32,032 nt of DNA, taken from the NCBI GenBank assembly GCA_014859105.1, contig JACUUX010000030.1, forward strand, positions 1 to 32,032, in the 5' to 3' direction. Below, one piece after another: positions 3,756 to 31,657 of the stretch; position 1 is the stretch's first letter, and each line of letters starts with the position of its first letter. Under the pieces are notes generated by a model. That model ran no database searches and had not been told where the DNA came from. It worked only from the letters and a program-made list of their open reading frames with translations. The stretch is from Nitrospirota bacterium. Its GTDB lineage: Bacteria; Nitrospirota; Thermodesulfovibrionia; Thermodesulfovibrionales; SM23-35. The position numbers and the translations under genes are program-made.

Positions 3756-3762
3756 GGAGACG

Positions 3763-6050: not shown

Positions 6051-6053
6051 AGT

Positions 6054-12742: not shown

Positions 12743-12776
12743 AGTGAAAGATAAGACTGAAAGGGAGACGAAGATT

Positions 12777-14835: not shown

Positions 14836-15111
14836 ATGTTTGTAATGGTAAGCTATGACATAAAGGATGATGGCATACGGAGAAAAATTCAGAAAATTAT
14901 AGAAGGCTTTGGAGAAAGAGTCCAGTACAGCGTATTTGAATGCAGAATCTCAGAGTCACAATATAGAGAACTCAAGAAAAAGGTTATTTCAGTAATGGAT
15001 AAGGACTCAGATAGTATAAGATTTTATAAAATTTGCAATTTCTGCTCAAGAAGGGTTGAGTATCAAGGTAATGGGAAAATTGCAGAAGAAGATTTCTTTT
15101 TCATGGTATAG
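14836..15111 (+). CDS. cas2: Cas2, first copy
   Basis: A 91-residue Cas2 that would bridge two Cas1 dimers in the adaptation complex. The ferredoxin-like first strand MVSYDIKDD carries the conserved Asp. GFGERVQYSVFECRIS is the typical Cas2 helix-strand segment, and RFYKICNFCSRRVEYQG is the last conserved part. It begins one base after the RT-Cas1 stop and is followed by a second, different Cas2. Confidence 0.93.
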   Translation: MFVMVSYDIKDDGIRRKIQKIIEGFGERVQYSVFECRISESQYRELKKKVISVMDKDSDSIRFYKICNFCSRRVEYQGNGKIAEEDFFFMV

Positions 15112-15113
15112 GA

Positions 15114-15389
15114 ATGTTTACCGTAGTGAGTTATGATATTGCTGATGATAAAAGAAGAGCGGATGTTGCGAATGAATTAGAAAATTTCGGCCTGAGGGTG
15201 CAGAAAAGTGTCTTCGAATGTTTTCTAAATGCGGAACAATTTAAGGAAACGAAAGGAAGGCTCGAAACTAAAATTGACTTTGCCGAGGATCAAATCCGTT
15301 ATTACTATCTCTGCAAAAAAGATTTTAATAAGATAGAGTGCAAAGGGAGAAACGTGATTTATAGAGATGAAGATTATTTCATGATATAA
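15114..15389 (+). CDS. cas2: Cas2, second copy
   Basis: A second 91-residue Cas2, two bases after the first. VVSYDIADDKRR, FGLRVQKSVFECFLN and IRYYYLCKKDF are clear Cas2 segments. It differs from the first copy at many positions, so it is not a recent duplicate. Both copies retain the N-terminal Asp (SYDI) and FECxL-type strand and look intact. They could form a heterodimer or serve different prespacer types. Confidence 0.92.
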   Translation: MFTVVSYDIADDKRRADVANELENFGLRVQKSVFECFLNAEQFKETKGRLETKIDFAEDQIRYYYLCKKDFNKIECKGRNVIYRDEDYFMI

Positions 15390-15411: not shown

Positions 15412-15993
15412 ATGAGTTTTGAATGGTTTACAGGTCCTGATTCTGAAATATGGGTATATTTAGACAGGGTTTCAATCATCTTGAGTTATATAGTAGTATT
15501 TTCAATCATTTATGGTATCGTGGTTCTTGTCAAATTCTTCAGAAGGTACAGGAAAATAAAAACACATATGAAAAAAGTTGATGGGACAAGCCCTAAACCA
15601 ATGGCTCTGGCTATAAGTTTTGGTGGAAGCATTAAAAAACCTGTAGAAGATTATCTTAATAAACACTATACACAAAGTATTTCTATAATGGATTATTCTT
15701 CAGAAAAAGAAGTAACTCCACAAAATATTCATGACCACATTAAAAAACTTCTTGAGCTTAAACATGACTTACAAGCAGAAGGAGTTACAGAATTGCATCT
15801 ATTCATAAAAGGACCGGTTATATTTGGTGCATTGGTTGGTGCGATGTTCGATAATTGGTGTAATGTCAAGCTCTACCACAATAACAGAAAAGGAGAATAT
15901 GAAGAGTGGGCAATGCTTCATGCAGCAAAAGAACTTTCACCTGACGAACAACTCGCTGTTCAGACAGCAAAGATGCTGGAGGGAAAAAGATGA
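15412..15993 (+). CDS. Single-pass membrane SAVED-domain protein
   Basis: A 193-residue protein. One hydrophobic segment at about residues 17-43 (VSIILSYIVVFSIIYGIVVL) is followed by a basic stretch (KFFRRYRKIK), which predicts a cytoplasmic C-terminal domain. Residues about 60-175 look like a compact SAVED domain, the CARF relative that binds cyclic oligonucleotides: MALAISFGGSIKKPVEDYL near the start and LHLFIKGPVIFGALVGAMFD then VKLYHN near the end, as in the family's HLFxxGPxxxAxxLG signature. No protease, nuclease or TIR domain is attached. I infer a membrane-perturbing effector or sensor responding to the Cas10 product. It overlaps the next gene (ATGA). Confidence 0.7.
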   Translation: MSFEWFTGPDSEIWVYLDRVSIILSYIVVFSIIYGIVVLVKFFRRYRKIKTHMKKVDGTSPKPMALAISFGGSIKKPVEDYLNKHYTQSISIMDYSSEKEVTPQNIHDHIKKLLELKHDLQAEGVTELHLFIKGPVIFGALVGAMFDNWCNVKLYHNNRKGEYEEWAMLHAAKELSPDEQLAVQTAKMLEGKR

Positions 15994-16256
15994 CTAAAGA
16001 GGATTTAATAACAATTAACCTTGAGGTTATATACGGAAAAGAAAAGGGTCTGAATGCCAAGTTAGATTTAATAGATGAATATTTACAGAAGGTAAAAGAG
16101 CTGTCATGCGAGGGGAAAGAGGTAATTCTTACGGGTGCTGCTCCTGTCTGGCTTTATCTGAAAATAGCACATGCCCTTCACGGAAGAACAAAAAAGTTGA
16201 TTTATAATTCTCCAGTTACCGGAGACGTGGTTATTTTTGATCATAATCCTTTTTAG
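15990..16256 (+). CDS. Csx3-like small protein, possible ring nuclease
   Basis: An 88-residue protein whose second half, GKEVILTGAAPVWLYLKIAH followed by LIYNSPVTGDVVIFDHNPF, resembles the Csx3 core (GKGVILSGRGPIWLYxxxxH...VYDPRLGGAVVV). Csx3 (Crn3) proteins degrade cyclic tetra-adenylate or bind RNA, and so switch type III signalling off. Gene order beside a SAVED sensor supports that role. The N-terminal half is more divergent than typical Csx3, and I cannot confirm the catalytic His/Asp pair, though H168-type residues of the core are represented by AHALHG and FDH. It starts inside the SAVED stop codon overlap, so the two are probably co-translated. Confidence 0.55.
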   Translation: MTKEDLITINLEVIYGKEKGLNAKLDLIDEYLQKVKELSCEGKEVILTGAAPVWLYLKIAHALHGRTKKLIYNSPVTGDVVIFDHNPF

Positions 16257-16273: not shown

Positions 16274-17047
16274 ATGAAAGAGATATGTGTTTATCACTTA
16301 AATCTTTGCAAAAGTCATATTAAAGGATCAAAGATTGTTTTGTTGCCAGGTGATCCTTTCAGGGTTCCTGAAATCGCTGAGGAGATTAAAAAACAGAATG
16401 GTGGTGAGATAAAAGAAATTGCATGGAAGCGAGAATATAGGACATTCTTATGCTATGTCAACAAAAAACCGGTACTGGTAACCTCAACTGGAATCGGAGG
16501 TTCTTCGACTTCAATAGCCATTGAAGAACTGGCTATGCTTGGTGTGAGAACTTTTATTAGGGTTGGTACAACTGGAGCAATACAAAAACACATAAAACCC
16601 GGAGATGTGATTATTACAACCGGCTCTGTCAGGCTTGATGGAGCATCCACTCATTATGCACCTATCGAGTATCCTGCAGTGGCTCATAACGAAATTGTGA
16701 ATGCCCTCATTGAGGGTGCTAAGAAAACAAAAGTCAAGTATCATGTAGGGATAACAGCCTCTTCGGATACATTCTATCCCGGACAGGAGAGATACGATTC
16801 ATTTACTAAATATGTCCCTAAACGGTTTCAGGGTACGATGGCGGAGTGGCAAAAACTTTTTGTATTAAATTACGAAATGGAATCATCTACAGTTTTAACC
16901 CTTACAAGTACAATGGGTCACAGGGGGGGATGCATATCTGGGGTTGTTGTAAACAGGACAGTTAAGGAAAAAATAACAAAAGAAGCTCTTATGTCTGGAG
17001 AAGCAAATGCTGTCAAAGTAGCTTTAGCTTCATTGGAATTCTTATAA
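16274..17047 (+). CDS. udp: Uridine phosphorylase
   Basis: Catalyses uridine + phosphate to uracil + ribose-1-phosphate. The 257-residue protein is full length compared with about 253 in E. coli Udp, and nearly every family motif is kept: LPGDPFRV (phosphate-binding Arg), TSTGIGGSSTSIAIEELA, RVGTTGAIQ, SVRLDGASTHYAP, ASSDTFYPGQERYD (Gln and Arg that select uracil) and NYEMESS (ribose-binding Glu-Met-Glu). Specificity for uridine is therefore likely. GGGAG precedes the ATG. It sits 17 bases after the Csx3-like gene and before the polymerase module. It may be a captured housekeeping enzyme, a salvage enzyme for RNA degraded during defence, or a nucleoside-depleting effector; sequence cannot decide. 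Confidence 0.92.
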   Translation: MKEICVYHLNLCKSHIKGSKIVLLPGDPFRVPEIAEEIKKQNGGEIKEIAWKREYRTFLCYVNKKPVLVTSTGIGGSSTSIAIEELAMLGVRTFIRVGTTGAIQKHIKPGDVIITTGSVRLDGASTHYAPIEYPAVAHNEIVNALIEGAKKTKVKYHVGITASSDTFYPGQERYDSFTKYVPKRFQGTMAEWQKLFVLNYEMESSTVLTLTSTMGHRGGCISGVVVNRTVKEKITKEALMSGEANAVKVALASLEFL

Positions 17048-17819: not shown

Positions 17820-20800
17820 ATGAAAGATATGATTATACTGTCTCCCCATCTTGATTCGTATAAAAAATTTATCAGTGTAAGTAATCAGGAGCAATCTTCA
17901 TTATTTAAACTTCTTTCCGAAGTATTCCCTATTAAAGTCGAAAAGTCTATTGAACAGAAGATTTTCACCAAAGCCCGACTGAGGGAAAAAGAGCTTGATG
18001 CGCAAGTAAAAGCTCTGTCCGGGAAAATACTTGCAACAGATATCATTCATCCGATTCATCGTACGGTCATTGCCAAAGTTGGGGAAGAACTCAATCAAGA
18101 TATTATAGAGAAAGCTATATCGGCAAAGATTCCCGAGGTCATGATTATGGTATATGACAGTTACGATGAATTGCGGATATTACCAGAAAAGATCGGGGAA
18201 ATCAGGGCAGGTGGTGTTTATGATTATTCAAAACTAAAGAGAGAAGAATCTATAAAGATAAACTTTGAGGGATACCAGATCAGCACAAGCCCGCTTACAG
18301 AACTACAGTGTTTTGAATCCTTTGAAAGCCTTATGACAAATATAAGGTTGAATCTCTCCATAGTGACTGATGTTCGATGGGTCTTTGATGGAATTGAACT
18401 CTATCACGACACTTCCACTAAGTCAGCAAATAGATCATTAGGCTCTGTCCCTCAGTTTACCGACAGAAGCAGCTTCATCATTAATGGGATTGAAAGAGTC
18501 CCGGTCGCACAGATTCTCCGCAGCGGATATGGGATCTTAATTGAGGGGAAAAGAGACAGTTCATTCGTAACTACTTACGAGGCATGGGTGAGGCCTAAAA
18601 GGGGGAGGTATCTGAAATTCAGCATACCTGACAGTGGTGATGATAAATGGATCATCTTGGCAACGATACACGGACTAAGAAAACCTATAAACCTCAAATA
18701 TTTCCTCGATGCATTTGATTTTATGAAGGAGGCTGATGAGGTATTCTCTGATAGCAGCTTTTATAAGCTTAACAAAGACGAAGCGATACTGAAAAGTCTC
18801 GGCAAGAGAAATATTACAGACACCATAGTCAGCCAAAAAGATATCAGTTTCCTCTCCCACCATTTTTTCAGTGATCAAAGTTCCTATTATCTCTCAGCAA
18901 AGGGTCGACAGAAGCTGAATGAAAAGCTGGCAGTTGCAAGCAGCAAACATGTACTTGCTTTACCTTCAATAGAAAAAATGTGTCTCACACGGGAAGATAT
19001 CCTGAGCACTGTTGCCTATCTCTTTAATCTTATTGAAGGAGAAAGCGGGTATACAGCAGATGATGTGGACAACCTGGCAAACAGGGAAGTGTTGCTTGTT
19101 GGGGATCACCTTGAAGCAGCTTCCATAAGGGCGCTTCGCAAGATTAAGCAGGCCCTTATAAAAGACATAAGACAAAATGAAGAAATGTCGTACACACTAT
19201 CCAAGATGCCTGTTTTCTTTAATTCTGCTATGGAAGACTATGCCAACGGTGAACTCTGTCAGATACTGGATATGACAAATCCTTTATCAGAAATCTCACA
19301 TAAAAGGAAGATAACTTTTTATGGGCCGGGAGGATTGTCGAAAGAGTACAGAGGTGTCTATAGACGGGACGTACATTATACCCATTATGGCCGCATCTGT
19401 CCTGTGGAAACCCCTGAGTCAGAAAAAATCGGGCTTACGGTTCACCTGGCTACTTACGCAAAGATCGAGGACGGTCAGATCAAAACCCCTATCATGACCG
19501 ATAAGGATTATCAGTTACCAGCGAATGCTGTTTTTATGGGTCCCAGTGATGAGACTCTTCCGATACTCCCCAAATCTGAAGAAAAGACCATTTTCGCCCG
19601 GCATGGTGAAAAGGAAATGATCAAATTAGATTCCCCGGATATGCCACATCACCAAGATGCTTTCCAGGGCCAGTTCCTGGGCATTGCAGCTTCCATGATA
19701 CCGTTTGTTCAGCATGATGATGCAAACAGGGTCCTTATGGGCGCCAAGAACCTTAAGCAGGCTCTTCCCCTTTTGAAACCGGAGCAGCCATTTGTTAAGA
19801 CGGGTATGGAAAAAGTTGCTGCGATGCTCAGCGGACGCGGAATTGTGGCAGAAAAAGCAGGGGAAGTCTTAAATGCCGACGAGCATGAGATCATTATTGA
19901 ACAAGAAGATCTGTCAAAAAGAACATACAAGCTGAATTCGATGGCACCTACACTCACGGAAACTGCTATTTTTCATAAGCCAGTTGTAAGTAAAGGCGAT
20001 TACGTTGCGGAAGGACAGCTCATTGCTGAAGGTGCTGCAATGAAAGACGGAGAGCTGGCGTTGGGAGTAAATCTGCTTGTTGCTTATATGCCCTGGGAAG
20101 GTTACAACTTCGAGGACGGCATCGTAATCAGTGACAGGCTCCAGAGAGAAGATATACTGACTTCTATCCATATTAAAGAAGTGATCGTTGATATCGATGA
20201 AGATGAAATCGCATGGTGGGAAGCAAAGAGCTCGAGTAGTTTTAAGGTTCTCGGAGATTTTATGCAGTTAAACAAGGACGGATATATCAACATCAACACT
20301 AAAGTTGAGGCGGATACTGTGCTTGTTCAGAAGTTTAAGAGATATAAAGAAAAGAAGAGCATGAAAAAGGGATGCAGTCTTATTTTTATAAAGGGGGAAT
20401 CGTATGTTGACAAGCCTATCTTGATTAAGGCGGACGATACTATGTGCGGAACGATCATCAAAGCAGAAAAGCGGGATATTTATGGCAAGCAGCGTATTGT
20501 TATCTGGATCCTTCAGGAAAGGAAAGTAACTGTTGGCGATAAACTCATGGGAAGACACGGGAACAAAGGGGTAATATCAAAAATACTCCCAATGCATGAA
20601 ATGCCATATTTTGTTGATGAAGAAAAAGGTGAAGTAGAGCAAAAGGGATCTGACTACTATCACGGAGAGGACAGGCCGCATAAACACATAGATATAGTCT
20701 TAAATCCAAATGGTGTAATATCGAGAATGAACCTCGGACAGCTTTTGGAAACGCATGCTGGCCTTTTCGCAAAGACAAAGGGAATCCCGCATATTACAGT

Positions 20801-23800
20801 AAGGCCATTCGAAGAATATGACATAGAGACTTTAAAAGGCGAACTTGATTCATTGGGGTTTTCTGATGGTAAAGCGACTCTCTACGACGGAGAAACAGCC
20901 CGACCATTCAAAAATCCTGTCACTGTCGGATACCAGTATATAGTGAAACTGAATCATCTGTCGGAGGAAAAAGTACATACCAGGCTGACTGGAAGATACA
21001 CCACGATTATCCAGCAGGCACCGAGAGGGAAAGAAAATGAGGGTGGACAGCGCATCGGCGAGATGGAGGTCTGGGCATTGCTTGCCCACAAGGCTTTCGT
21101 GCTCCTTCAGGAGCTCTTGTCGATTAAATCCGATGATGTTGAGGGAAGACTGGACGCCATGGAAAAAATGAAGAACCTCAACGTTACCAAAATGAATTTC
21201 GGTTCGCTGAAACTTCAGCGGCATATGCCTGAATCTTTCCGTGTGCTTCTACTCCTGCTCCATGGGCTTGCTATAAAGCCTGTGATACATTTAACGGACG
21301 GCACATCGATTGAAGATTTTGAATACACACCGTCTTTCACTGTAGACCAGATGTCAGAGCTTAGCCTTCATCGGAACGATGAAGGCGCGAAATGCCATGT
21401 CACAGAGAGCAGGTATAGAGAAAGGCTTGTTTATGGAGAAATATCCTGCGGGTGCAGGGGATATTTCAAGGATATCCTGCTGAGCAGAAATCCCCTGATA
21501 TGCAGAAAGCATGGCCGTGAAGTCAAACTTTCCTGTGGCTGCGAAGGGAATCTTTTGAATTTGACAGAGCATACGAATGCAGGATTCAAGTGCAAGAAGC
21601 ATAAAGAGGTAGTGAAATTTTCTGTAGGGAAGCAGGCCCAATTTTACTCAGCCAAGGATTTGAAAGAAGATAGTCAGATCATTAAAAGACTTGGCAATTT
21701 GATCCAGACAGAGATTTACGGATCAAAAGAACAGTTAAAAACAAAAAAAGAAATGGGGAAGTTATTACTCGATGTTATGCAAGACCCGAAATTTGCGGAG
21801 AAGGTACTTGAGAAGAAACCACAGCTTGCATTAACGAATGATCTGAAGATGCTTGTTGAGAGGGTGAAAAACATTCATGACAGGCCATTTTCAATTCTGA
21901 AGACCAGGGAGAAGAATATGGTCAGAAATCTCAACAGAAAACTCCTCGATAAGGCTTATCCCAAAGGACTGCAGGTAGTGTGGCAGGATGAGCAGACAGT
22001 ATTTACTGAAGATGGAATTTTTTCACAAAAGATATTTGGCCGTGAAGAGAAAAAAAGGCGTGAAACAATCGACTTCCTCAATCTGGCAATGGAGATGGGA
22101 TATCCTCTGTCCCGCACCACTTCGAAAGATGGAGGATATAAGTATGCTTTGACAATCAAGAAACTGCCAATAATACCGCCTGAACTAAGGCCCCTATTGC
22201 TTGATGAATCAGGCGGATCTGAACTGAACCGCCTGTATCAACGTGTCATAGCGCAAAACATAAGGCTTAAAGATATTCTTGAAATGAAGAAGAGGGGGGA
22301 GAATATTCCCCAAAATGAGATAGATGAAGAGGTCCAGGAACTCCAGAGTTGTCTGGACCAACTGATGGTCGACGGGCTCGAAGATTCAGGAAAGGTATAC
22401 CGTTCTCTCATGGATATGCTGAATGGCAAGTATGGGCTTTTCAGGCAGGCAATGCTCGGCAAACGGGTCGATGCCAGTGGAAGAGCTGTAATAGTACCTG
22501 CTCCTCATCTTTCCATCACTCAAATGGAACTTCCCTTCAAAATGGCACTTGAACTCTTCAAACCATGGATTCCGCAGTGTCTTATATGGTACAGCGAAAA
22601 TCTTGAAGGTGGCAAAGAAGACCTGAAAAAACTGAAAATAAAAAAGTTGGGGCGGGCACAGGCTGAAGGCATAATAGCTTTACACAGAGAACCCCTTCAG
22701 CAAAAAATGATCAAGGATGCCATGCAGGAATGGATCAAAGCTAATGATCTTGTCGTACTTCTCAACCGGGCCCCCAGCCTCCATAAATATAATATTCTGG
22801 CCTTTTCTCCGGTGATAACTGATAATCCTACAATTGGCCTTCATCCACTAGTCTGCACAGGATTCAATGCGGATTTTGACGGAGATCAGATGGCAGTATT
22901 TCTCCCATGGATTGGGCAGGACGAGGCGCGGGAAAGGCTCACTCCTCTCAGAAATGTTCTTTCTTCCGCAAATGGAAGTTTGCTCCTGGATTTCTCGCAG
23001 GACATCGTTGCCGGGCTCTTTTTATTAGAAAACAAGAAGAAAAAGGAAATAATTCAGGAGATGAAAGATAGCTATCTGACAAGCAACAAAGAAAAGTTTG
23101 CAGAAATTGCGAATAAAAAAATGCTGGATGGTTTCAGTAGCGCGACAAAAACAGGTTTGACGTTCAGCCTCTTTGACCTTGATCCCATAATGGTCTGGGA
23201 GAAGGAACGTGACGGGATTCTCAGTGAAGTTGTAAGGGATATCGGGCCATATGATCAGCTCTCCCAGGATATAAAAGAAAAGGTTGTTGATTTTTGGAAG
23301 ATAAGAGTGAAAGACAAAATAGCTGAAAAAATGAATGCGAACAAAGAGAACCCTATTGCTGTTATGTCATCATCAGGAGCAAGAGGCGATCTCGGAACAA
23401 TCACTCAGCTGGCGGGAATGAGGGGGTTCATGGTAAAAACAGGTGGTTCCCTGAGTGAAGAACCTGTCAGGACAAACTTCAGGGAGGGATTGTCACCCCT
23501 TGAATTTTTTATTTCCACACATGGATCCAGAAAATCGCTCGTCGACAAAAAACTCAAGGTAGCTGAAGCAGGGGACTTCACAAGAAGGCTTGTTCACAGC
23601 GCAATAGATTATTGTGTGGTAAATCATGACTGTGGCACCAAAGATGGGATACATATAGAGGATATCGATCCCCTGAGTGTTGAATCAATGGTGGATGAAG
23701 CGCTGATTGGGCAGGTATCTGCCTTTGACTATAATTCGGCCGGCATAAAGAGAGGCCGGAGTATTAAAAGTGAGGATATTGAATCGCTCAGGGAAATCGG

Positions 23801-24695
23801 GATCAATAAAATATTTATATGGGCTTCCGGGAAAGTCCCTTTTCGGAACAGGATCGTGGGAAGGGTTCTTATGCAAGATATACCCGGGGGGTTTATTAAG
23901 GCGGGAGAGGTTATTGGTGAAGAAGCAGCTGATAAGATCGAAGCTATGGGCATAAACAGACTTCTCTTAAGGTCGGTTATGACGTGCAAAGCTCAGAAAG
24001 GTTTCTGCCAGAAATGTTATGGGTGGGAACTCTCGATGAGAGAATACCCAGAGATAGGATTGCCGGTCGGTGTTATCGCTGCTGAATCTATCGGGGAGAG
24101 AGGCACACAGTTGAGCATGAGGACATTTCATACAGGCGGTGTCAAAGGAGAAGATATCACACAAGGACTTCCCCGAGTGAAGAATATCTTTGAGAACAAG
24201 CCCATTCCGCTGATGGTATTCAAAATCCTTAAGCCCGGGGATTCTCCATTTGCCATAAATGAAGAGGTTGATGAATTGAAGCTTTTCTTTGAAGTGAAGC
24301 GAATAGAATCGGAAAACGGGGAAATTCCTTCGTACGAGAAAATCGGCACAGTAAAGAAGTCCCTTGGAGAGCTCCTGGAGGAGTACAAATCACTTGATAA
24401 TCTCGTATTGCTCCTTCTTAGGGAAATGCATGCTGCCTATAAAGGAGAAATTGCTGACAAGCATTTTGAGATTATCCTCAAATCAATGTTTAAAGCTCAT
24501 GAAACAGGTTATAAACTTGTCGGCCTAACACATGCAGCCGCAACTGCTGATTTCCTTTCCTCAGCATCGTTTCAACGTGCCAAGCAGGTATTTAAAGATG
24601 CAGTCAAGCATAAGGGGGGGCTGAAGACGTCTTTGTCAGGGCTTAGAGATGCAATTATGCTTGGAAGACTTCCAGAAAGAGAGGAGGTTATCTAA
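17820..24695 (+). CDS. rpoBC: Fused beta-beta' RNA polymerase
   Basis: DNA-dependent RNA polymerase core with beta (about 1-1150) and beta' (about 1150-2291) in one chain. The ATG at 17820 has GCGGAGG six bases upstream; a TTG at 17805 is the alternative. Beta motifs: TDRSSFIINGIERV (214-227), GRICPVETPE (524-533), PFVQHDDANRVLMGAK (628-643), MPWEGYNFEDGIV, GRHGNKG (911-917), QRIGEMEVWAL. Beta' motifs: LLGKRVD-type MLGKRVDASGR, NRAPSLHK, catalytic NADFDGDQM with D1685/D1687/D1689, bridge-helix GARGDLGTITQLAGMRG, trigger-loop SIGERGTQLSMRTFHTGG, and Zn2 cysteines (HDCGT, MTCKAQKGFCQKC). A duplicated CxC...CxxH zinc ribbon lies at 1210-1261. It is shorter than rpoBC fusions of Helicobacter, without large insertions. 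No rpoA or rpoZ is nearby. It overlaps the sigma gene (TAATG). Confidence 0.97.
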   Translation: MKDMIILSPHLDSYKKFISVSNQEQSSLFKLLSEVFPIKVEKSIEQKIFTKARLREKELDAQVKALSGKILATDIIHPIHRTVIAKVGEELNQDIIEKAISAKIPEVMIMVYDSYDELRILPEKIGEIRAGGVYDYSKLKREESIKINFEGYQISTSPLTELQCFESFESLMTNIRLNLSIVTDVRWVFDGIELYHDTSTKSANRSLGSVPQFTDRSSFIINGIERVPVAQILRSGYGILIEGKRDSSFVTTYEAWVRPKRGRYLKFSIPDSGDDKWIILATIHGLRKPINLKYFLDAFDFMKEADEVFSDSSFYKLNKDEAILKSLGKRNITDTIVSQKDISFLSHHFFSDQSSYYLSAKGRQKLNEKLAVASSKHVLALPSIEKMCLTREDILSTVAYLFNLIEGESGYTADDVDNLANREVLLVGDHLEAASIRALRKIKQALIKDIRQNEEMSYTLSKMPVFFNSAMEDYANGELCQILDMTNPLSEISHKRKITFYGPGGLSKEYRGVYRRDVHYTHYGRICPVETPESEKIGLTVHLATYAKIEDGQIKTPIMTDKDYQLPANAVFMGPSDETLPILPKSEEKTIFARHGEKEMIKLDSPDMPHHQDAFQGQFLGIAASMIPFVQHDDANRVLMGAKNLKQALPLLKPEQPFVKTGMEKVAAMLSGRGIVAEKAGEVLNADEHEIIIEQEDLSKRTYKLNSMAPTLTETAIFHKPVVSKGDYVAEGQLIAEGAAMKDGELALGVNLLVAYMPWEGYNFEDGIVISDRLQREDILTSIHIKEVIVDIDEDEIAWWEAKSSSSFKVLGDFMQLNKDGYININTKVEADTVLVQKFKRYKEKKSMKKGCSLIFIKGESYVDKPILIKADDTMCGTIIKAEKRDIYGKQRIVIWILQERKVTVGDKLMGRHGNKGVISKILPMHEMPYFVDEEKGEVEQKGSDYYHGEDRPHKHIDIVLNPNGVISRMNLGQLLETHAGLFAKTKGIPHITVRPFEEYDIETLKGELDSLGFSDGKATLYDGETARPFKNPVTVGYQYIVKLNHLSEEKVHTRLTGRYTTIIQQAPRGKENEGGQRIGEMEVWALLAHKAFVLLQELLSIKSDDVEGRLDAMEKMKNLNVTKMNFGSLKLQRHMPESFRVLLLLLHGLAIKPVIHLTDGTSIEDFEYTPSFTVDQMSELSLHRNDEGAKCHVTESRYRERLVYGEISCGCRGYFKDILLSRNPLICRKHGREVKLSCGCEGNLLNLTEHTNAGFKCKKHKEVVKFSVGKQAQFYSAKDLKEDSQIIKRLGNLIQTEIYGSKEQLKTKKEMGKLLLDVMQDPKFAEKVLEKKPQLALTNDLKMLVERVKNIHDRPFSILKTREKNMVRNLNRKLLDKAYPKGLQVVWQDEQTVFTEDGIFSQKIFGREEKKRRETIDFLNLAMEMGYPLSRTTSKDGGYKYALTIKKLPIIPPELRPLLLDESGGSELNRLYQRVIAQNIRLKDILEMKKRGENIPQNEIDEEVQELQSCLDQLMVDGLEDSGKVYRSLMDMLNGKYGLFRQAMLGKRVDASGRAVIVPAPHLSITQMELPFKMALELFKPWIPQCLIWYSENLEGGKEDLKKLKIKKLGRAQAEGIIALHREPLQQKMIKDAMQEWIKANDLVVLLNRAPSLHKYNILAFSPVITDNPTIGLHPLVCTGFNADFDGDQMAVFLPWIGQDEARERLTPLRNVLSSANGSLLLDFSQDIVAGLFLLENKKKKEIIQEMKDSYLTSNKEKFAEIANKKMLDGFSSATKTGLTFSLFDLDPIMVWEKERDGILSEVVRDIGPYDQLSQDIKEKVVDFWKIRVKDKIAEKMNANKENPIAVMSSSGARGDLGTITQLAGMRGFMVKTGGSLSEEPVRTNFREGLSPLEFFISTHGSRKSLVDKKLKVAEAGDFTRRLVHSAIDYCVVNHDCGTKDGIHIEDIDPLSVESMVDEALIGQVSAFDYNSAGIKRGRSIKSEDIESLREIGINKIFIWASGKVPFRNRIVGRVLMQDIPGGFIKAGEVIGEEAADKIEAMGINRLLLRSVMTCKAQKGFCQKCYGWELSMREYPEIGLPVGVIAAESIGERGTQLSMRTFHTGGVKGEDITQGLPRVKNIFENKPIPLMVFKILKPGDSPFAINEEVDELKLFFEVKRIESENGEIPSYEKIGTVKKSLGELLEEYKSLDNLVLLLLREMHAAYKGEIADKHFEIILKSMFKAHETGYKLVGLTHAAATADFLSSASFQRAKQVFKDAVKHKGGLKTSLSGLRDAIMLGRLPEREEVI

Positions 24696-25660
24696 TGCCG
24701 GATCAGGGATATTTTGCTGATTTAAGCACATCATTTGGAGATATTACTAAGCAGGATGTTGAAAAACATACTGCCAGGTTGACGAAAGCGGAACATTCGA
24801 TTAGGGAAGAAATTCTAACAATACAGGCAAAGGATATCGAACAGTTTCTACAACAACAGAGTTTCCTGAAGTTTCAGCAGGAATTCTCGGAGAGTCCCTC
24901 TGAGTCCTCGGAGCATGAGACAATCGAAGAAGATGAAGCGTGGGACATAATTGCTGAAGGGTATGAAACATCAACTGACCCTGACGGGGACTTTTCAGAA
25001 GGTACTGACCTCACCACAGCTTTTGATACAACATATCAGGCCACCGATATACATAAAAGATCATTTGTTGTATCTAAAAGGCAGAAGATATATGATGTGG
25101 AGATTAGGGAGGATAAAGAAGAGTGGTGCGTTTATGTGCCTGCTGCGGCTGTTATCGACAGATATGATTTTAATCAGGCATTGAAAAACGTACCATCTAA
25201 GGTGTGGCTTGGCAACTTTATACTCAAAGTTGCGAATGAAAGACAGAAACACCTTCTTCATATAGGTGAATTCCTTGTCCAGAACATAGAGCGTCATCCT
25301 GAATTTATGGAAGATGGACTTGCATGCCTTCTGGAGTTCACCCAGGAAAATATAGCGAAAGAACTTGATGTTGATCTTACCACTATTACCAGGCTGAAAA
25401 ATGCACGCTTTTTCGTTACGAGGGTAGGAGAAATAACACTGGAGAATATTTTGAATAATACCAAGACAGGTTTTGCTTTGCTGGTAAGGAAGATCATTGA
25501 TCGAGAGGATCCGACCAAACCTCTCAGTGATACAGAAATAGCAGAGAAATTACCTGATTCTTGCAAGTGTACCGGCAGACACATAGGCAATATCAGAAAT
25601 GAATTGGGAATTCCAGGCAAGCATAATCGGAAAAAACCACGCATGGCAGAAAGAGCATAA
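24695..25660 (+). CDS. Divergent sigma-54 (RpoN-like) factor
   Basis: The 321-residue protein aligns by eye with the C-terminal half of RpoN: WLGNFILKVANERQKHLLHI (171-190), a core-binding/HTH part with FTQENIAKELDVDLTTITRL (215-234), then LVRKIIDREDPTKPLSDTEI (263-282) and TGRHIGNIRNELGIP at 293-307, where RpoN has its promoter-reading RpoN box (ARRTVAKYRE). The box is heavily altered, so a non-canonical -24 element is expected. The N-terminus is Gln-rich around 49-62 (IEQFLQQQSFLKFQQ), like region I, and is followed by an acidic stretch (78-102) like region II; the protein is much shorter than normal RpoN (about 480). The start overlaps the polymerase stop, with GAGGAGG upstream, implying equimolar synthesis. 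Confidence 0.88.
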   Translation: MPDQGYFADLSTSFGDITKQDVEKHTARLTKAEHSIREEILTIQAKDIEQFLQQQSFLKFQQEFSESPSESSEHETIEEDEAWDIIAEGYETSTDPDGDFSEGTDLTTAFDTTYQATDIHKRSFVVSKRQKIYDVEIREDKEEWCVYVPAAAVIDRYDFNQALKNVPSKVWLGNFILKVANERQKHLLHIGEFLVQNIERHPEFMEDGLACLLEFTQENIAKELDVDLTTITRLKNARFFVTRVGEITLENILNNTKTGFALLVRKIIDREDPTKPLSDTEIAEKLPDSCKCTGRHIGNIRNELGIPGKHNRKKPRMAERA

Positions 25661-25661
25661 G

Positions 25662-27584
25662 ATGGGAAAGGTGAAAATTCTTATTATAAGTAATGGAAAC
25701 TTTTTAGAACGTATTCTTAAAGACAATAATATTTATTATGAGTTACTGAACAGTAAGAGTCAAAGAGATATTAACGCAAAAATAAAATCTCTTCAAAAAA
25801 ACAAAATCGATATAATTTTTCTCGATACATCCTTAATAGATGAACCAGTCTCACAATTTTTTGAGCCCTTGAACAATTTTTGTAAAGATAAATCTTACAG
25901 CCATCCACCCATTTTTGTCGTATATGAGAAATCTTCCTTTGATGTAAGGGCTGAAATATGGAAACAGCCCATCATCGGTTTTGCCAAAAAGGGCTCTGCT
26001 GAAGCCAACTCCGATATTAAAAAAATTATAACTGATATAGAAAACAGAAAATCACATGAAAAAGATCCCGGGATAGAAATCGGTAGCGTAGAGTCTGTTG
26101 CCCCAGATCTTTACGAAAGATTTAAGTTCATCAGTCTTACCGCCGGAAGAATGCGCGAATTCATGTTGGATTTTAAGAACATCATTAATAACATTACCCA
26201 CATAAAAAATGATGATTCCTTTTGCAATGCTTACCCCAATGAATGGCTGGATTATATGCACTATACTCTTCATCCGCCTGAGGATAAACAAACACAGGAA
26301 TCCTTTGAAAAATTAGGAAAAAGATTGATAAGTAAAACAAATATTTTTGAGGATGCGAAACTCACAAAGAAATTTGAGGAAATATTTTGCGATGAAGAGA
26401 GAGTAAAAAACGAAAAGCTGAACCATATACTTATAGAGGGGGAGACAGGCACAGGTAAGTCCCTTATCGCAGAGATGATCAAACAATTCACATGTGCTAA
26501 GAGGTTTGAGAAAGTTACCTGCACAAACATTTCTACAAATCTCCTTGAAGGCGAATTATTTGGTCATATGAAAGGCTCTTTTACCGGAGCTTACCAAACC
26601 AAGGCAGGTAGGGCTATCAATGCTTATAACGGGATCATATTCCTTGACGAAATAGGAGACATGGATCCATATCTTCAGGCAAAGATACTTACCTTTCTTG
26701 ATAACGGTCGTATTGAGCCAATTGGTTGGATCGGACCTACTCTTTATATCCCATCATTGGTTGTTGCTGCTACTAACAAAGATCTGCTTAATCTTGCAAA
26801 AGCGAGAAAATTCAGGGAAGACCTTTACTATCGCTTTGCCCAGAGAATAACAATCCCACCATTAAGAGAAAGGAAAGGTGATACCGATCTCCTTGTAGAC
26901 TTCATTCTTCAAAATCCCGATATTAATCCTTTGAAAGGTGAAACAAGAACGGTCAGCTATATAAATGCACATGCGATAGAAAAGCTTAAAACGCATATTT
27001 TCCCGGGAAATTACCGTGAATTGGAATATATATTGCTTGACGCTGTAAAAAAGGCAAAAAGGCTAAGAAGCAGCGTTATCCTCCCCGAAGACATAGTCTT
27101 TCATGAGCCTTCAATAGAAGAAAGCGATGCTGTTTTCGTGGTTCCCAAAAAGACTGAAGGAGGAGAGGTAAAAATACTCCTCCAGTGGGACGTTTATTGG
27201 AAACAATACTTCTTTATCGGTGGCAGGTTTGAACGAAACAAGGATGTAACATTGGAAGATACCGCCCGCCGTGAAATAACAAACAAGATTAAAATAGACA
27301 AAGGCTATCGACTGACACCCATAAGCGATGACTTGTCCTCGCTTCAGTACCCGAAGCAGTATGCGGAAAGGCGGCTCTATCAATTCCATGTATTTGGCAT
27401 TGAATTCGAGCGTCCGGTGTTTGATTGGCTGATAAGACGCGCTTGCATTCTTGCAAGTATTAGCGACGTTGTACGGGGTGATTATAAGGGGAAAAGAATT
27501 TCTGAAACAGTCAGGGAGGTATGGGAGAAGCTCTCTTCAGGAATCGAAGAATTGCCTGAGTCATTCAAGGCGGAGGGGAAATGA
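25662..27584 (+). CDS. Sigma-54-activating AAA+ protein with receiver-like and Nudix-like ends
   Basis: A 640-residue bacterial enhancer-binding-protein relative that should remodel the sigma-54 complex by ATP hydrolysis. The AAA+ core is at about 225-480: Walker A GETGTGKS (260-267), sigma-54-contacting loop GSFTGA (305-310, consensus GAFTGA), Walker B IIFLDE (325-330), arginine-finger region KFREDLYYRF (383-392) and FPGNYRELE sensor II. Residues 1-125 resemble a receiver fold (KILIIS, DIIFLDTSL with D55, PIFVVYEKS, GFAKKGS) but lack the first-strand acidic pair, so phosphorylation is doubtful. After 490 there is no Fis helix-turn-helix; instead a Nudix-like segment (GGRFERNKD...EDTARREIT, 520-540) appears. 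It sits one base after the sigma gene. An upstream in-frame start lies inside that gene. Confidence 0.9.
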   Translation: MGKVKILIISNGNFLERILKDNNIYYELLNSKSQRDINAKIKSLQKNKIDIIFLDTSLIDEPVSQFFEPLNNFCKDKSYSHPPIFVVYEKSSFDVRAEIWKQPIIGFAKKGSAEANSDIKKIITDIENRKSHEKDPGIEIGSVESVAPDLYERFKFISLTAGRMREFMLDFKNIINNITHIKNDDSFCNAYPNEWLDYMHYTLHPPEDKQTQESFEKLGKRLISKTNIFEDAKLTKKFEEIFCDEERVKNEKLNHILIEGETGTGKSLIAEMIKQFTCAKRFEKVTCTNISTNLLEGELFGHMKGSFTGAYQTKAGRAINAYNGIIFLDEIGDMDPYLQAKILTFLDNGRIEPIGWIGPTLYIPSLVVAATNKDLLNLAKARKFREDLYYRFAQRITIPPLRERKGDTDLLVDFILQNPDINPLKGETRTVSYINAHAIEKLKTHIFPGNYRELEYILLDAVKKAKRLRSSVILPEDIVFHEPSIEESDAVFVVPKKTEGGEVKILLQWDVYWKQYFFIGGRFERNKDVTLEDTARREITNKIKIDKGYRLTPISDDLSSLQYPKQYAERRLYQFHVFGIEFERPVFDWLIRRACILASISDVVRGDYKGKRISETVREVWEKLSSGIEELPESFKAEGK

Positions 27585-28657
27585 ACAATCTGCTTAGCTT
27601 CGATAGAAAGAACTTTAGCAAACAGGGGTTAGAGGGAATAAAAAATGATTTCTTCTACGCTGTTTCTGTTACCCATATTAAAGGCAACTTCTGGAGACTG
27701 AAGGATTATGCAAAAAAGTTTTCGCGAAAGATACGAGACACGCAGCTTGCTATATACAGAAATGAGTCAAAATTTGATTCAGAACAAAAATGCTTTCTCG
27801 ATAATATCATAGCCGGTCTCCGCAATATACAGAGTGATCTTGATAATTCCATACAATGCACGGCTCAATATGTCAACTTTTCTCTTCAAAGCATGAAGGA
27901 GGCAAATCAACGACTCAGGCACATCCAGGATAAAGGGTACGGAGACGGAGTGAGAAAGGCTTTGTGGGGCATCAGAGATACCGTCATCCCAAATGCAATA
28001 GAGAAACTTTGCACAGATTTCATGCGGCTCGAGAATCAACTCATATCTGTCATTAAGGATTCCCTGAGGCCGAATGACGTTCTTCAGTGCTTTGAAGTAT
28101 TTGAAGCAAAAGATACCGGAATCACCGCAGTGCTTTATGCGCAGGCAAAAGACATATTACAAGAGCTGATCATGAACAGGAAGATATTTCTTGCGAGTGT
28201 GCCGGCAGGCTATTTTATTGATATCCTTGCACCCGCGCATAAAATATTCTATGACTTTTCAGACCCGGAGAAGACACTTAAAACTTTGAATAAAAAATTG
28301 GATATGTCTCTCAAGAAAAAGGAAGATTTCCCGAAATCAAAATCATTTCAGATAGCGCAGCAGATGTTATCCATGAATGACGATCCAAAAATCCTGGAGA
28401 CTTATGCAGGTAGAACTTTTATCATCCATTTCCTTAAGGATCAGCATGATGATAGGTCCTTTACCGGCGAGCATGTATCCGAGGAAGTTGTCTGGAAGCT
28501 TATGATGCACCTTGAACTGGAAGTCGAGGGCGAAAATGGGGAATTCCTTCATTGTAGAGTAGTGAAGGAGAAAAACCCTACATTGGTTAAGATCCTAACC
28601 CTTCCGAGACGCAAAACAGGATGGTTTTTGGTAACATCTCATGCCACTGTTGTTTAG
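27581..28657 (+). CDS. Unknown helical protein between bEBP and MoxR genes
   Basis: Not recognised. The 358-residue protein begins in an ATGA overlap with the activator gene. Residues about 30-150 are predicted long amphipathic helices with coiled-coil character (DSEQKCFLDNIIAGLRNIQS, MKEANQRLRHIQDKG). The middle is helical (LYAQAKDILQELIMNRK). The last 90 residues are strand-rich (RTFIIHFLKD, VVWKLMMHLELEVEGENGEF, GWFLVTSHATVV). There is no nucleotide-binding motif and no membrane segment. The position between a sigma-54 activator and a MoxR-VWA pair suggests an adaptor or substrate of the AAA+ machines, which is inference from context only. Confidence 0.75.
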   Translation: MNNLLSFDRKNFSKQGLEGIKNDFFYAVSVTHIKGNFWRLKDYAKKFSRKIRDTQLAIYRNESKFDSEQKCFLDNIIAGLRNIQSDLDNSIQCTAQYVNFSLQSMKEANQRLRHIQDKGYGDGVRKALWGIRDTVIPNAIEKLCTDFMRLENQLISVIKDSLRPNDVLQCFEVFEAKDTGITAVLYAQAKDILQELIMNRKIFLASVPAGYFIDILAPAHKIFYDFSDPEKTLKTLNKKLDMSLKKKEDFPKSKSFQIAQQMLSMNDDPKILETYAGRTFIIHFLKDQHDDRSFTGEHVSEEVVWKLMMHLELEVEGENGEFLHCRVVKEKNPTLVKILTLPRRKTGWFLVTSHATVV

Positions 28658-28667
28658 GAGGTAATAA

Positions 28668-30077
28668 ATGGGCATATTAAGCGGCCTTGCTGTAGGATAC
28701 GAGCAGATCGAGCCAGTGATTGTCTCAAACGTTGCTCTCGATAGAAACATTATCCTTGTTGGAAGACATGGAACATGCAAAACGACGCTTGCAAGAGAGC
28801 TTGCCAAAGGCTACGAGGGATCATTTGTCATATATGATGCGACCAAGGACGACATAATATCCATCTGCGGTATCCCAAAGACAAAAGCCCTCGAGGAAGG
28901 AGTATTTGATTTTGCCATAGGGGAGAGAACTATCTGGGACAAAAAGCTCATTGTCATAGATGAAATTGGACGTGCAACGAAAGAAAATCAGAATATACTC
29001 CTCGAGATTTTACAGGAGAAGACATGCTTCGGGAAAAAGCTTGCTTACAGGACACTGATAGCCACAATGAATCCCGAGTCATACGCTGCCTCCCTCCGAC
29101 TGGATGAGGCCCTGCTGGACAGGTTTTACTGTGTAATCAACGTGCCGGATTTTTATAAGGGTGCCCCAAAGAAGTCGATCAGTGATATTGTGATGATGAA
29201 TCTCAATCAGCAGAGAATGACAACAACTGATGGTCTTGTAGAAGCCTATGCGAAGGTCAGGAATAATTATGAAGAATTGAAACGGCTTGCCATAGATGCG
29301 GTAGCCACCTATGTGAGTCATCTGCTCGAGGTCCTGACAGGGAGTGGTGATCGGTACATTTCGCCGAGACGGTACACCATGCTGGCCGATGAAATTCTCA
29401 TTATCGGAGCTTATTATCTCTACACAGAGGAATCGAAATATCTGGAAAAGGCAGCTAGGATGGCCTTGAACTATGCGATAGCCCTTCCCCTGAAGATTGA
29501 ACTTGCAAAACTGTATTCACTTCACAATAACTTCAGACAATTTCTCGATATCGAAGGTGCTAAAAACACCAAGGTAATGCAGCTCCGGGCGGAGATTGCT
29601 CGCCTTAGGAACGATGAAGAAAAAACAGAATTCATAATCAGGAATCTTAAAGATATTGCAGAGCATCTTAAACAAGATGAAGCGACAAATCTGATGGGGC
29701 TTGCCCTTGAAAAATGTAAGGACAAGGAGCGGGCACTCCTGCCGGATTATTTTAATGCCCTCAGAACTATCGCTGATGGGGTTGGATTTGATGACATCAA
29801 GCGTTCAGTAACCTCTGAATACAGGATTGCCTGGGATGCAGGTATCCAGGAATTGATTCAGAAACTGGGTAAGATGAAATTAGGTTCAGCTGAGGACTCC
29901 TCGTACCTCGAAGAAATCAATAAATATCTTCAGAAAATACAAACCCCGGACATCTTTGGGAGCAAGGAGCCTGAAGTAATGCAGTTCAGGAAGCTGATTT
30001 TTCAGGAAAAAGATAAATTTCTCCGGATATCTTCAATAAAAGAGCTTTATTCACTCATTTTTCAGAAGGACTCATGA
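28668..30077 (+). CDS. MoxR-family AAA+ ATPase
   Basis: A 469-residue MoxR-type AAA+ ATPase, usually a chaperone-like partner of a VWA protein. Walker A is GRHGTCKT (32-39), Walker B LIVIDEIGRA (94-103), sensor I IATMNPESYAASLRLDEALL and arginine finger DRF (151-153). A helical lid follows (about 170-270, including ISPRRYTMLADEI). The last 180 residues are predicted helical, with TPR-like or coiled-coil character (KVMQLRAEIARLRNDEEKTE). AGGAGGT precedes the ATG at 28668. The stop overlaps the VWA gene start (ATGA), the usual MoxR-VWA pairing. It could activate, or load a metal into, the VWA partner, or act on the polymerase; neither is shown. Confidence 0.9.
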   Translation: MGILSGLAVGYEQIEPVIVSNVALDRNIILVGRHGTCKTTLARELAKGYEGSFVIYDATKDDIISICGIPKTKALEEGVFDFAIGERTIWDKKLIVIDEIGRATKENQNILLEILQEKTCFGKKLAYRTLIATMNPESYAASLRLDEALLDRFYCVINVPDFYKGAPKKSISDIVMMNLNQQRMTTTDGLVEAYAKVRNNYEELKRLAIDAVATYVSHLLEVLTGSGDRYISPRRYTMLADEILIIGAYYLYTEESKYLEKAARMALNYAIALPLKIELAKLYSLHNNFRQFLDIEGAKNTKVMQLRAEIARLRNDEEKTEFIIRNLKDIAEHLKQDEATNLMGLALEKCKDKERALLPDYFNALRTIADGVGFDDIKRSVTSEYRIAWDAGIQELIQKLGKMKLGSAEDSSYLEEINKYLQKIQTPDIFGSKEPEVMQFRKLIFQEKDKFLRISSIKELYSLIFQKDS

Positions 30078-31657
30078 GGGGCGATTTAAATATTTCCTCT
30101 GATGAGGCTTATCCTCTGCTTGAAGCCGCCAGCGAGTTAGAGATAACACTCCTTGAATGTCAAAAACTCATTACGATCAGCGATGAGGTGAACATTGCCT
30201 GCTGGAGCTATAACACGAAAACAGGAGAAGAAAAAATCATCATAAATCCTGAGATCCTCAATTTCCCGCCAAAATATCTTGAGATGGTACTAAGACACGA
30301 AATACTTCATAAGTACCTGTACAAAGGATACTCCCCAACGCTGCATGATCATCAATTGCTGAATGTCGCACTGGATATCTGTATTAATAGGTTGCTTTTC
30401 TCTGTATACAAAGATGATTTTGTGAATTTCTGCAATACAATCTATAGCAAAAATTCGGAAAACCGTCAAAATATCCTCGCTTTAGCATGGGCAGGCCTTG
30501 ATCCTGAAGAAATAAAGGATGAAAAGATCAGGAACCTGTACAAAAAAATATGGAAGGGACAAAGAGTTCCATCTCCGAAAGAAATCTACTACTCTCTGTT
30601 GAGTCAGGATATAGACCCTACGCAAGTTGGAGGACCAATACCATTTGCAGGAAGAAGTATAGGAAAGGGTCTTGGAAAGGGAGACAAAGGGGAAGCTAAA
30701 GGGGAAGATAAGGGGCGAGGAAATGGTACAGATGAAGGACAAGGCGAAGGAAGGAAGGGAAACGGAAAAAGAAAGAAAAAAGGAAATAAATATATCGATA
30801 AAGACGGCTCTCTGGGAGATGAAGAAGATAACGGAGATGACGGAATTGTTTTGCGCGAAATCCCTGATGATGATGGGCAGCATGAAGTAGACAAATCAGA
30901 AGATAAGATCTGGAAAGGATTAGGGGACATAGGGGAAAGTCAAGGTGGAGGGTTCTCCAATTCTGTTTCTGATTGGCTGAAAATCATTCAGGTCGAAAGA
31001 AGGGAATGTGAAACCTCTGAGCTTGAAGATTTCCTCAACCGGATAGAATCAGTTGACATACTTGATGAGGTCTCAACAAGGATTATTCATGCCATAACAG
31101 GAGCTACCCAGAGACAACTTTATCCCTATCGCCTCAGTCGAGCCGGATTTGTGTACCTCAACGCTGGCATATCCGACATCCTCCATCAATACTGGAACAA
31201 GACTGTCGAGGGGAGGAAGACAAAGCTAAATATCTATGTTGATACATCTCCCTCTATGTACCCTTTCAGGGAGCAAGAGATTTTTCTTATCGAGCGGTTC
31301 AGGGACCTTTTCCCAACTACTTTTTATGTTTTTGCAGGGAAAGTGGAGGAATTTCTTATTGATGACTTTATAAAAGGGAAATACCCTGGTGGGAGTTCAA
31401 CAAGCTTTGATAGTGTAATTAAGCATTTTATTGATTCAGATGCCGAATGTGGTGTTGTCTTCACGGACGGGGAATCTTCTGTCTCGATGCATAATAGAAG
31501 CAATTTCAAGATGTCAAGGAAAAGGCTTTTTACAGTGTATTTTAATGATGCCCAACGGAACCAACAGATAAAATCAGATTTGGATTATATGTCTGAGGCT
31601 GTAATGCAGATAAATGTAAAAGACAAGGTGCTTGGAAAAAAACTCAAAATGTATTAG
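30074..31657 (+). CDS. VWA-domain protein with HExxH metallopeptidase-like N-terminus
   Basis: A 527-residue partner of the MoxR ATPase. The N-terminal domain (about 5-180) carries RHEILHKYLYKG, an HExxH motif at 75-79, followed by HDHQLLNVALDICINR, as in the DUF2201-type putative metallopeptidase domain found before VWA domains. A low-complexity Gly/Lys/Glu linker spans about 193-280. The VWA domain (about 380-525) has a full MIDAS: DTSPS (390-394), the GGSSTSFDS threonine loop (439-447) and FTDGE (463-467). No signal peptide or membrane segment is seen, so it is cytoplasmic. Protease activity is possible but unproven, since many members of this group are uncharacterised. It is the last gene of the overlapping sigma-bEBP-unknown-MoxR-VWA operon. 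Confidence 0.87.
   Translation: MRGDLNISSDEAYPLLEAASELEITLLECQKLITISDEVNIACWSYNTKTGEEKIIINPEILNFPPKYLEMVLRHEILHKYLYKGYSPTLHDHQLLNVALDICINRLLFSVYKDDFVNFCNTIYSKNSENRQNILALAWAGLDPEEIKDEKIRNLYKKIWKGQRVPSPKEIYYSLLSQDIDPTQVGGPIPFAGRSIGKGLGKGDKGEAKGEDKGRGNGTDEGQGEGRKGNGKRKKKGNKYIDKDGSLGDEEDNGDDGIVLREIPDDDGQHEVDKSEDKIWKGLGDIGESQGGGFSNSVSDWLKIIQVERRECETSELEDFLNRIESVDILDEVSTRIIHAITGATQRQLYPYRLSRAGFVYLNAGISDILHQYWNKTVEGRKTKLNIYVDTSPSMYPFREQEIFLIERFRDLFPTTFYVFAGKVEEFLIDDFIKGKYPGGSSTSFDSVIKHFIDSDAECGVVFTDGESSVSMHNRSNFKMSRKRLFTVYFNDAQRNQQIKSDLDYMSEAVMQINVKDKVLGKKLKMY

What the first reader, a model, noticed from the sequence alone, without database searches (positions are those of the whole stretch)
25662..27584. 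Sigma-54 activator with no DNA-binding domain but a Nudix-like C-terminus
A normal activator ends in a Fis-type HTH. Here residues about 490-640 include GGRFERNKD then EDTARREIT, similar to the Nudix box (GX5EX7REUXEEXGU) although incomplete at the last acidic residues. A nucleotide- or cyclic-oligonucleotide-binding domain in place of the HTH would let a small-molecule signal control the ATPase. The N-terminus is a receiver-like fold missing the first-strand acidic pair.
Basis: partly seen in the sequence, partly recalled or inferred. Interest (0 to 1): 0.72.

Follow-up and report, generated by a model that had tools for sequence, protein, structure and literature searches.

The report
Activator of a CRISPR-linked private RNA polymerase
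The odd sigma-54 activator is one gene of a small transcription kit (its own fused RNA polymerase, its own short sigma-54-like factor and this activator) sitting in a type III CRISPR locus, which suggests that some bacteria couple virus detection to a private RNA polymerase.

Summary
The ORF (best start 25662) is a sigma-54 activator with an intact AAA+ core, no DNA-binding domain, a receiver-like N-terminus lacking the acidic pair, and a C-terminus that matches only Pfam NUDIX (E 0.0015-0.003, below cut-off) and lacks two of the three catalytic acids.

The gene directly follows a 321-aa sigma-54-like protein and a 2,291-aa fused beta-beta' RNA polymerase with intact catalytic motifs, on a contig with a type III CRISPR array, Cas10, RT-Cas1 and a CARF-HD protein. 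The host genome has its own separate rpoB, rpoC and rpoN.

Sixteen of 183 genomes in one Synergistota order carry a fused-RNAP homologue. Where readable, it lies between a CARF-HD gene and an acidic protein plus a HTH-less activator, mostly beside type III cas genes. These activators form one AAA+ clade with the window's (100/100). None of the relatives has HTH or Nudix, so the Nudix-like domain is an extra, not a replacement.

Most likely: CRISPR signalling switches on a dedicated, enhancer-independent RNA polymerase. A CRISPR-linked "RNAPol + CARF" was noted in one line in 2023 (UAS-58), uncharacterised. This is an elaborated variant.

The parts
25662..27584 (+). sigma-54 activator (bEBP), 640 aa, without DNA-binding domain
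   Evidence: Pfam Sigma54_activat 8.6e-43; start choice; AAA+ clade with Synergistota RNAP-linked activators 100/100
25662..26051 (+). receiver-like N-terminal domain (residues 1-130), acidic pair missing
   Evidence: 10.3 bits to a receiver model, above all 941 shuffles; TadZ-like receiver E 0.025; AF2 strand/helix alternation but pLDDT about 28-46
26430..27110 (+). AAA+ sigma-54 interaction domain and lid
   Evidence: Pfam; AF2 pLDDT mostly above 85; motif positions
27129..27374 (+). Nudix-like stretch, degenerate box (GGRFERNKD...TARREITNK)
   Evidence: Pfam NUDIX E 0.0015-0.0029, below cut-off; not confirmed by a local Nudix model
24695..25660 (+). short sigma-54-like protein (321 aa): acidic middle, sigma-54 DNA-binding domain with divergent RpoN box (CTGRHIGNIRNELGIP)
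   Evidence: Pfam Sigma54_DBD 3.5e-14; PDB RpoN 3.8e-9; region I and core-binding domain not detected
17820..24695 (+). fused beta-beta' RNA polymerase, 2,291 aa
   Evidence: Pfam Rpb2_6 8.3e-74, Rpb1_2 4.9e-29 and others; NADFDGD at residue 1683, bridge helix and trigger-loop motifs; separate host rpoB/rpoC elsewhere in the genome
8486..10834 (+). CARF-HD protein (PF09651 + PF24391), homologue of the gene directly upstream of the RNAP in Synergistota
   Evidence: BLASTP 24% over 529 aa, E 2e-25
422..11780 (+). type III (III-D-like) CRISPR effector genes incl. Cas10 with GGDD, Csx10-like, RAMPs, Cas6
   Evidence: NCBIfam hits; translation
11986..12726 (+). CRISPR array, 11 repeats spaced 69-75 nt (ATTCTGAAGAGCCGATAATAAGAGGCAACTGAAAC)
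12744..14834 (+). RT-Cas1
   Evidence: PADLOC Cas1_IIIb 5.1e-122, RT 7.7e-94
14836..15389 (+). two Cas2-like genes
   Evidence: by sequence resemblance and position only
15412..16256 (+). SAVED protein with an N-terminal hydrophobic segment, then Csx3/Crn3-like protein
   Evidence: NCBIfam SAVED 1.3e-10, Csx3 5.8e-7
16274..17047 (+). uridine phosphorylase
   Evidence: NCBIfam PRK11178 2.9e-100, above cut-off
27581..28657 (+). uncharacterised 358-aa protein, overlaps the activator's stop
   Evidence: no family; not found in 60 relatives
28668..31657 (+). MoxR-type AAA+ and metallopeptidase/vWA-type partner (HEILH, DTSPS)
   Evidence: Pfam AAA_5 1.2e-12, DUF2201_N 0.0057; motifs read from translation

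Best explanation
The protein is the AAA+ activator of a private transcription machine run by a type III CRISPR system. SHOWN BY SEQUENCE: it is encoded with a fused beta-beta' RNA polymerase and a short sigma-54-like factor in a tightly packed, overlapping gene set on a type III CRISPR contig; it has the ATPase and sigma-contact motifs; it has no DNA-binding domain; related activators in another phylum are encoded in the same order next to a homologous fused polymerase and a CARF-HD protein. INFERRED: on target RNA recognition Cas10 makes cyclic oligoadenylate; a CARF protein (probably the CARF-HD protein) relays the signal; the activator assembles without an enhancer because it has only one polymerase to serve, and remodels the sigma-54-like factor so that this polymerase starts transcription of unknown defence targets. 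In this variant the pseudo-receiver and the Nudix-like tail would add a protein or nucleotide input that gates the ATPase.
For: Fused RNAP, sigma-54 DBD and activator adjacent and overlapping. Catalytic RNAP motifs kept in the window and NADFDGD in all 15 relatives checked. Host has its own rpoB, rpoC and rpoN. Same gene order in Synergistota: CARF-HD, fused RNAP, acidic protein, HTH-less activator; Cas10 in 9 of 13 neighbourhoods of 16-20 kb. Activator AAA+ clade window + 12 at 100/100 against 44 others. RNAP tree places the window polymerase outside sampled housekeeping RNAPs on the branch to the Synergistota ones, 100/99. CARF-HD homology E 2e-25. Contig composition fits the rest of the genome. 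CRISPR-linked 'RNAPol + CARF' noted independently in PMC10910872.
Against: No expression or biochemistry. Only one locus of the window's kind was found (0 further in 396 genomes of the phylum sample). The Synergistota protein in the sigma position is not detectably sigma-54, nor are the N-termini of the two activator groups detectably homologous. Region I, the usual activator target, was not detected in the window's sigma factor (300 of 2,000 shuffles as good). No canonical -24/-12 promoter stands out. The RNAP tree carries a long-branch warning. The CARF-HD gene is not adjacent to the RNAP in the window.
Confidence: 0.6

Rival explanations
1. The RNA polymerase is itself an effector: once released by the CARF-linked signal it makes RNA promiscuously (or consumes NTPs), and the AAA+ protein is only its on-switch; there is no specific regulon.
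For: CARF-HD directly upstream of the RNAP in Synergistota; the third protein there is not recognisably sigma-54; no promoter motif found; type III systems usually drive toxic effectors (established knowledge).
Against: The window cassette keeps a recognisable sigma-54 DNA-binding domain with HTH and RpoN-box region, which argues for promoter choice.
Confidence: 0.2
2. The activator works on the host's ordinary sigma-54 RNA polymerase (as RtcR-type activators do) and the RNAP cassette is a separate neighbour.
For: AAA+ and GSFTGA are of canonical type; host RpoN is present; 45% identity to an ordinary activator's AAA+.
Against: AAA+ clade with RNAP-linked activators in another phylum, same gene order; no HTH to choose host promoters.
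Confidence: 0.1
3. The RNAP, sigma and activator came recently from a phage or other mobile element and only happen to lie in a defence island.
For: Jumbo phages carry multisubunit RNAPs; locus absent from the rest of the order and phylum sample.
Against: No relative by direct scans of 2.9 million viral contigs and only distant or ordinary RNAPs in phage records; viral activators fall outside the clade; recurrent CARF-HD and cas linkage in Synergistota.
Confidence: 0.06
4. The C-terminal tail is not a Nudix fold but an unrelated extension (oligomerisation or protein contact); the box resemblance is chance.
For: Below Pfam cut-off; local Nudix model no better than shuffles; no structure model of use; acids missing.
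Against: Only Pfam family found, E 0.0015-0.0029 over about 80 residues from before the box to after it.
Confidence: 0.4

Closest known systems
UAS-58, 'two-component RNAPol + CARF' near type III CRISPR (Altae-Tran et al. 2023, PMC10910872)
   Same: RNA polymerase plus CARF protein at type III CRISPR loci; FleQ (a sigma-54 activator) appears in the same figure's legend.
   Different: The paper's text gives one line, no sigma-54-like factor, no HTH loss, no mechanism. Figure and supplement could not be read here, so identity with UAS-58 is likely but not proven. The window adds the sigma-54 DBD, the Nudix-like tail, the MoxR/vWA genes and a longer, less derived polymerase.
RtcR / RtcR_PspF CARF-AAA-HTH activators
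   Same: AAA+ sigma-54 activator, defence-linked; PDLC01995 is the best PADLOC match.
   Different: No CARF detected at the N-terminus, no HTH; falls outside the CARF-AAA-HTH rows in the AAA+ tree. Five true CARF-AAA-HTH loci of the phylum show no RNAP nearby.
HTH-less bEBPs that activate from solution (FlgR of epsilonproteobacteria, CtcC of Chlamydia; from memory)
   Same: Sigma-54 activation without enhancer binding.
   Different: Those serve the host RNA polymerase; this one is encoded with its own polymerase and sigma-like factor.
NrtR-type Nudix-wHTH regulators (from memory)
   Same: A Nudix domain used as ligand sensor without catalysis.
   Different: No wHTH; here the tail is fused to an AAA+ ATPase, and the Nudix assignment is weak.
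Type III-E Craspase / CASP-sigma (from memory)
   Same: Type III CRISPR output feeding a sigma factor.
   Different: There an ECF sigma for host RNAP is released by proteolysis; here a sigma-54-like factor comes with its own RNAP.

Membership tests
sigma-54 activator (bEBP) | AAA+ domain with Walker A/B and GAFTGA-type loop | tested here: met
   Pfam 8.6e-43; GETGTGKS, FLDEIGD, GSFTGA
sigma-54 activator (bEBP) | C-terminal Fis-type HTH (usual, not universal) | tested here: not met
   no HTH family to E 1; model match ends before the HTH
response regulator receiver | (beta-alpha)5 fold with acidic pair, phospho-Asp and Lys | tested here: inconclusive
   fold supported by model score above shuffles; acidic pair absent, Asp and Lys kept; no confident structure
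Nudix hydrolase | complete Nudix box GX5EX7REUXEEXGU | tested here: not met
   GGRFE..RREITNK: two helix acids replaced (sequence)
Nudix fold | profile match above curated cut-off | tested here: not met
   18-19 bits against 21.1
CARF-AAA-HTH (RtcR/PspF2) | N-terminal CARF domain | tested here: not met
   match only from profile position 146; no CARF hit in the N-terminus
sigma-54 (RpoN) | DNA-binding domain with RpoN box | tested here: met
   PF04552 3.5e-14, profile positions 14-160 of 160; RpoN box divergent
sigma-54 (RpoN) | region I and core-binding domain | tested here: not met
   no Pfam hit for these domains; region I resemblance not above shuffles
bacterial multisubunit RNA polymerase | catalytic beta-beta' core incl. 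NADFDGD, bridge helix, trigger loop | tested here: met
UAS-58 RNAPol + CARF | RNA polymerase and CARF protein at a type III CRISPR locus | tested here: met
   in the window the CARF-HD gene is 7 kb upstream of the RNAP
UAS-58 RNAPol + CARF | sequence membership of the published cluster | not testable with these tools
   supplement and figures not available

The most novel reading that the evidence does not exclude
A CRISPR-controlled orthogonal transcription system: an immune locus that carries its own catalytic RNA polymerase subunits, its own sigma-54-like factor and an enhancer-independent AAA+ activator gated by a nucleotide-type signal through a degenerate Nudix domain, so that virus recognition turns on a private regulon out of reach of phage proteins that shut down the host polymerase.
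Probability: 0.3. Interest if true: 0.92.

Novelty: new variant of a known kind. Interest (0 to 1): 0.72.

Why it matters
Type III CRISPR outputs known so far are mostly nucleases, proteases, membrane proteins and host-RNAP transcription factors. A defence system with its own RNA polymerase would be a different kind of output, and many phages disable the host RNA polymerase, so a private one has an obvious use. The cassette is compact enough to reconstitute in vitro, could show how sigma-54 activation works without an enhancer, and may be an orthogonal expression tool. The association was listed in 2023 but, as far as I could find, has not been analysed or tested.

Tried and rejected
(1) A single genome-contig scan with the activator gave mostly generic AAA+ hits; only L004 proved to be a real relative, found by reading its neighbours. 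(2) Viral scans with the sigma-like protein and with the RNAP found no relative; with the activator alignment only generic activators. (3) Plasmid and phage records give only ordinary or distant RNAPs and RpoN. (4) AlphaFold2, two runs: AAA+ good, N- and C-terminal parts too poor for a fold search, so none was run. (5) I first read the Synergistota third gene (L004 1886-2785) as a small sigma-54 from a RpoN-box-like tail; rejected: no Pfam hit, tail not conserved in relatives, profile comparison null. (6) I first took the N-termini of window and Synergistota activators as homologous from the joint alignment; rejected by a profile built without the window. The phylum search with A5 contains the window by construction and is no evidence of homology. 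(7) A region I resemblance in the sigma-like protein did not beat shuffles. (8) Canonical -24/-12 sites: 10 found, 5.4 expected, none in a convincing place. (9) Contamination of the bin: composition argues against it, not proof.

Full report
What is there. Its best start is 25662, directly after the stop of the gene before it; a longer frame from 25599 overlaps that gene. It encodes 640 residues with a canonical sigma-54 AAA+ core (Pfam 8.6e-43). No HTH family is found anywhere in it. Residues 1-130 score like a receiver (10.3 bits to a model of 24 receivers of the same genome; best of 941 shuffles 6.9); the acidic pair is replaced by Ser-Asn while the strand-3 Asp and strand-5 Lys remain, so ordinary phosphorylation is unlikely. 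Residues about 490-571 match Pfam NUDIX and nothing else (E 0.0015-0.0029, below the curated cut-off; reversed control negative). A Nudix model from 28 relatives does not confirm this (5.2 bits, several of 906 shuffles higher). Two of the three helix acids are missing, so hydrolysis is unlikely even if the fold is right. Two AlphaFold2 runs gave good AAA+ cores and uninterpretable ends.

Surroundings. The gene before it (24695-25660) has a sigma-54 DNA-binding domain (Pfam 3.5e-14; solved RpoN structures 3.8e-9), a divergent RpoN box and no detectable region I or core-binding domain. Before that, 17820-24695 is a single 2,291-residue beta-beta' RNA polymerase: domain hits from Rpb2_3 to Rpb1_5, NADFDGD at residue 1683, bridge-helix and trigger-loop motifs, the second zinc site and a Zn1-like motif in the linker (zinc sites read from sequence). 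RNAP and sigma genes overlap by one base, the activator follows 1 nt after the sigma stop, and the next gene overlaps the activator's stop. The same genome has its own rpoN and separate rpoB and rpoC, about 37-44% identical to the fused protein in the conserved stretches.

The contig is a type III CRISPR locus: Cas10 with GGDD, Csx10-like and RAMP genes, a CARF-HD protein, Cas6, an 11-repeat array, RT-Cas1, Cas2-like genes, SAVED and Csx3-like proteins and a uridine phosphorylase. Downstream lie an unknown protein, a MoxR-type ATPase and a metallopeptidase/vWA-type protein. The window is the whole contig. Its composition fits the rest of the genome (GC 0.40 against 0.39-0.42; tetranucleotide correlation 0.92-0.95).

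Relatives. In the window's order (176 genomes) and a sample of 396 genomes of its phylum nothing similar was found (the order search used a stretch that also matches housekeeping rpoB, and only the window scored high). One hit of the first scan, a Synergistaceae contig (L004), turned out to encode the end of a second RNA polymerase, a 299-residue acidic protein and an activator that ends right after the AAA+ lid. Its genome has housekeeping rpoB/rpoC plus this polymerase, whose first half lies fused on another contig directly behind a CARF-HD gene. The two contig ends overlap by roughly 100 nt but are not identical, so the join is likely, not proven; intact copies in other genomes make this unimportant.

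In that order 16 of 183 genomes have such a polymerase. In the neighbourhoods read, CARF-HD lies upstream in 15 and a HTH-less activator downstream in 14; Cas10 was found in 9 of 13 stretches of 16-20 kb. All 15 polymerases checked keep NADFDGD. The third gene there is acidic and conserved within the group, but neither Pfam, nor a profile search, nor profile comparison links it to sigma-54 or to the window's sigma factor. Likewise a profile of the Synergistota N-termini does not find the window's N-terminus. What is demonstrably shared is the AAA+ domain, the RNA polymerase, the CARF-HD protein and the gene order.

Trees. On the AAA+ domain, the window and 12 Synergistota activators form one side of a branch with 100/100 support against 44 ordinary, CARF-type and viral activators. 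On 900 RNAP columns the window polymerase stands outside the sampled housekeeping polymerases on the branch to the Synergistota ones (100/99), with a long-branch warning. Its closest rows by path are ordinary polymerases from several phyla at nearly equal distance, so it is not a recent copy of the host's genes.

How it most likely works. Cas10 signalling is sensed by CARF proteins; the AAA+ activator then opens the promoter complex of the dedicated polymerase. With one dedicated polymerase no enhancer site is needed, which explains why the whole clade lacks the HTH. The Nudix-like tail is specific to the window protein and would be an extra input. The signal path, the promoter and the regulon are inferred. 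The main open points are the missing region I of the sigma factor and whether the Synergistota acidic protein does the job of sigma.

What is known. The text of Altae-Tran et al. [quoted passage not shown] it gives no mechanism, and the 2025 classification paper has no mention of RNA polymerase, sigma or RtcR. Other text searches found nothing (only open-licence papers are held). vWA-MoxR systems near CRISPR are reported there too. I therefore file the finding as a new variant of a known but unstudied kind.

Limits. One locus of the window's type; unnamed host genome whose phylum I did not establish; no expression data; figure and supplement of the key paper unread.

Noticed in passing
window 17124-17774 and 31697-31996: Two small unknown proteins flanking the RNAP cassette on both sides share a 57-residue stretch with the motif PDDWR(L/M)TR (BLASTP E 3e-6); possible duplicated substrate or adaptor of the MoxR/vWA pair.
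   Followed up: partly
window 16274-17047: An apparently complete uridine phosphorylase (above NCBIfam cut-off) lies between the CRISPR accessory genes and the RNAP cassette; nucleotide-consuming or signal-processing role possible.
   Followed up: no
window 15412-16256: SAVED protein with an N-terminal hydrophobic segment next to a Csx3/Crn3-like protein: likely cOA effector and its off-switch.
   Followed up: no
window 21490-21610: In the beta-beta' linker two tandem Cys/His motifs (CGC..CRKH and CGC..CKKH) resemble a duplicated beta' Zn1 site with the last Cys changed to His.
   Followed up: no
L150-L162 (Synergistota): Fused polymerases here are only about 1,370-1,730 aa, lack the trigger-loop STHGxRK motif and are shortened at the beta N-terminus, yet keep NADFDGD: very small multisubunit-type RNAPs.
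   Followed up: partly
L123-L127: True CARF-AAA-HTH activators in the window's phylum lie next to type I restriction-like operons (L123, L125, L126) or an RT-Cas1-like gene (L127), without any RNAP.
   Followed up: partly
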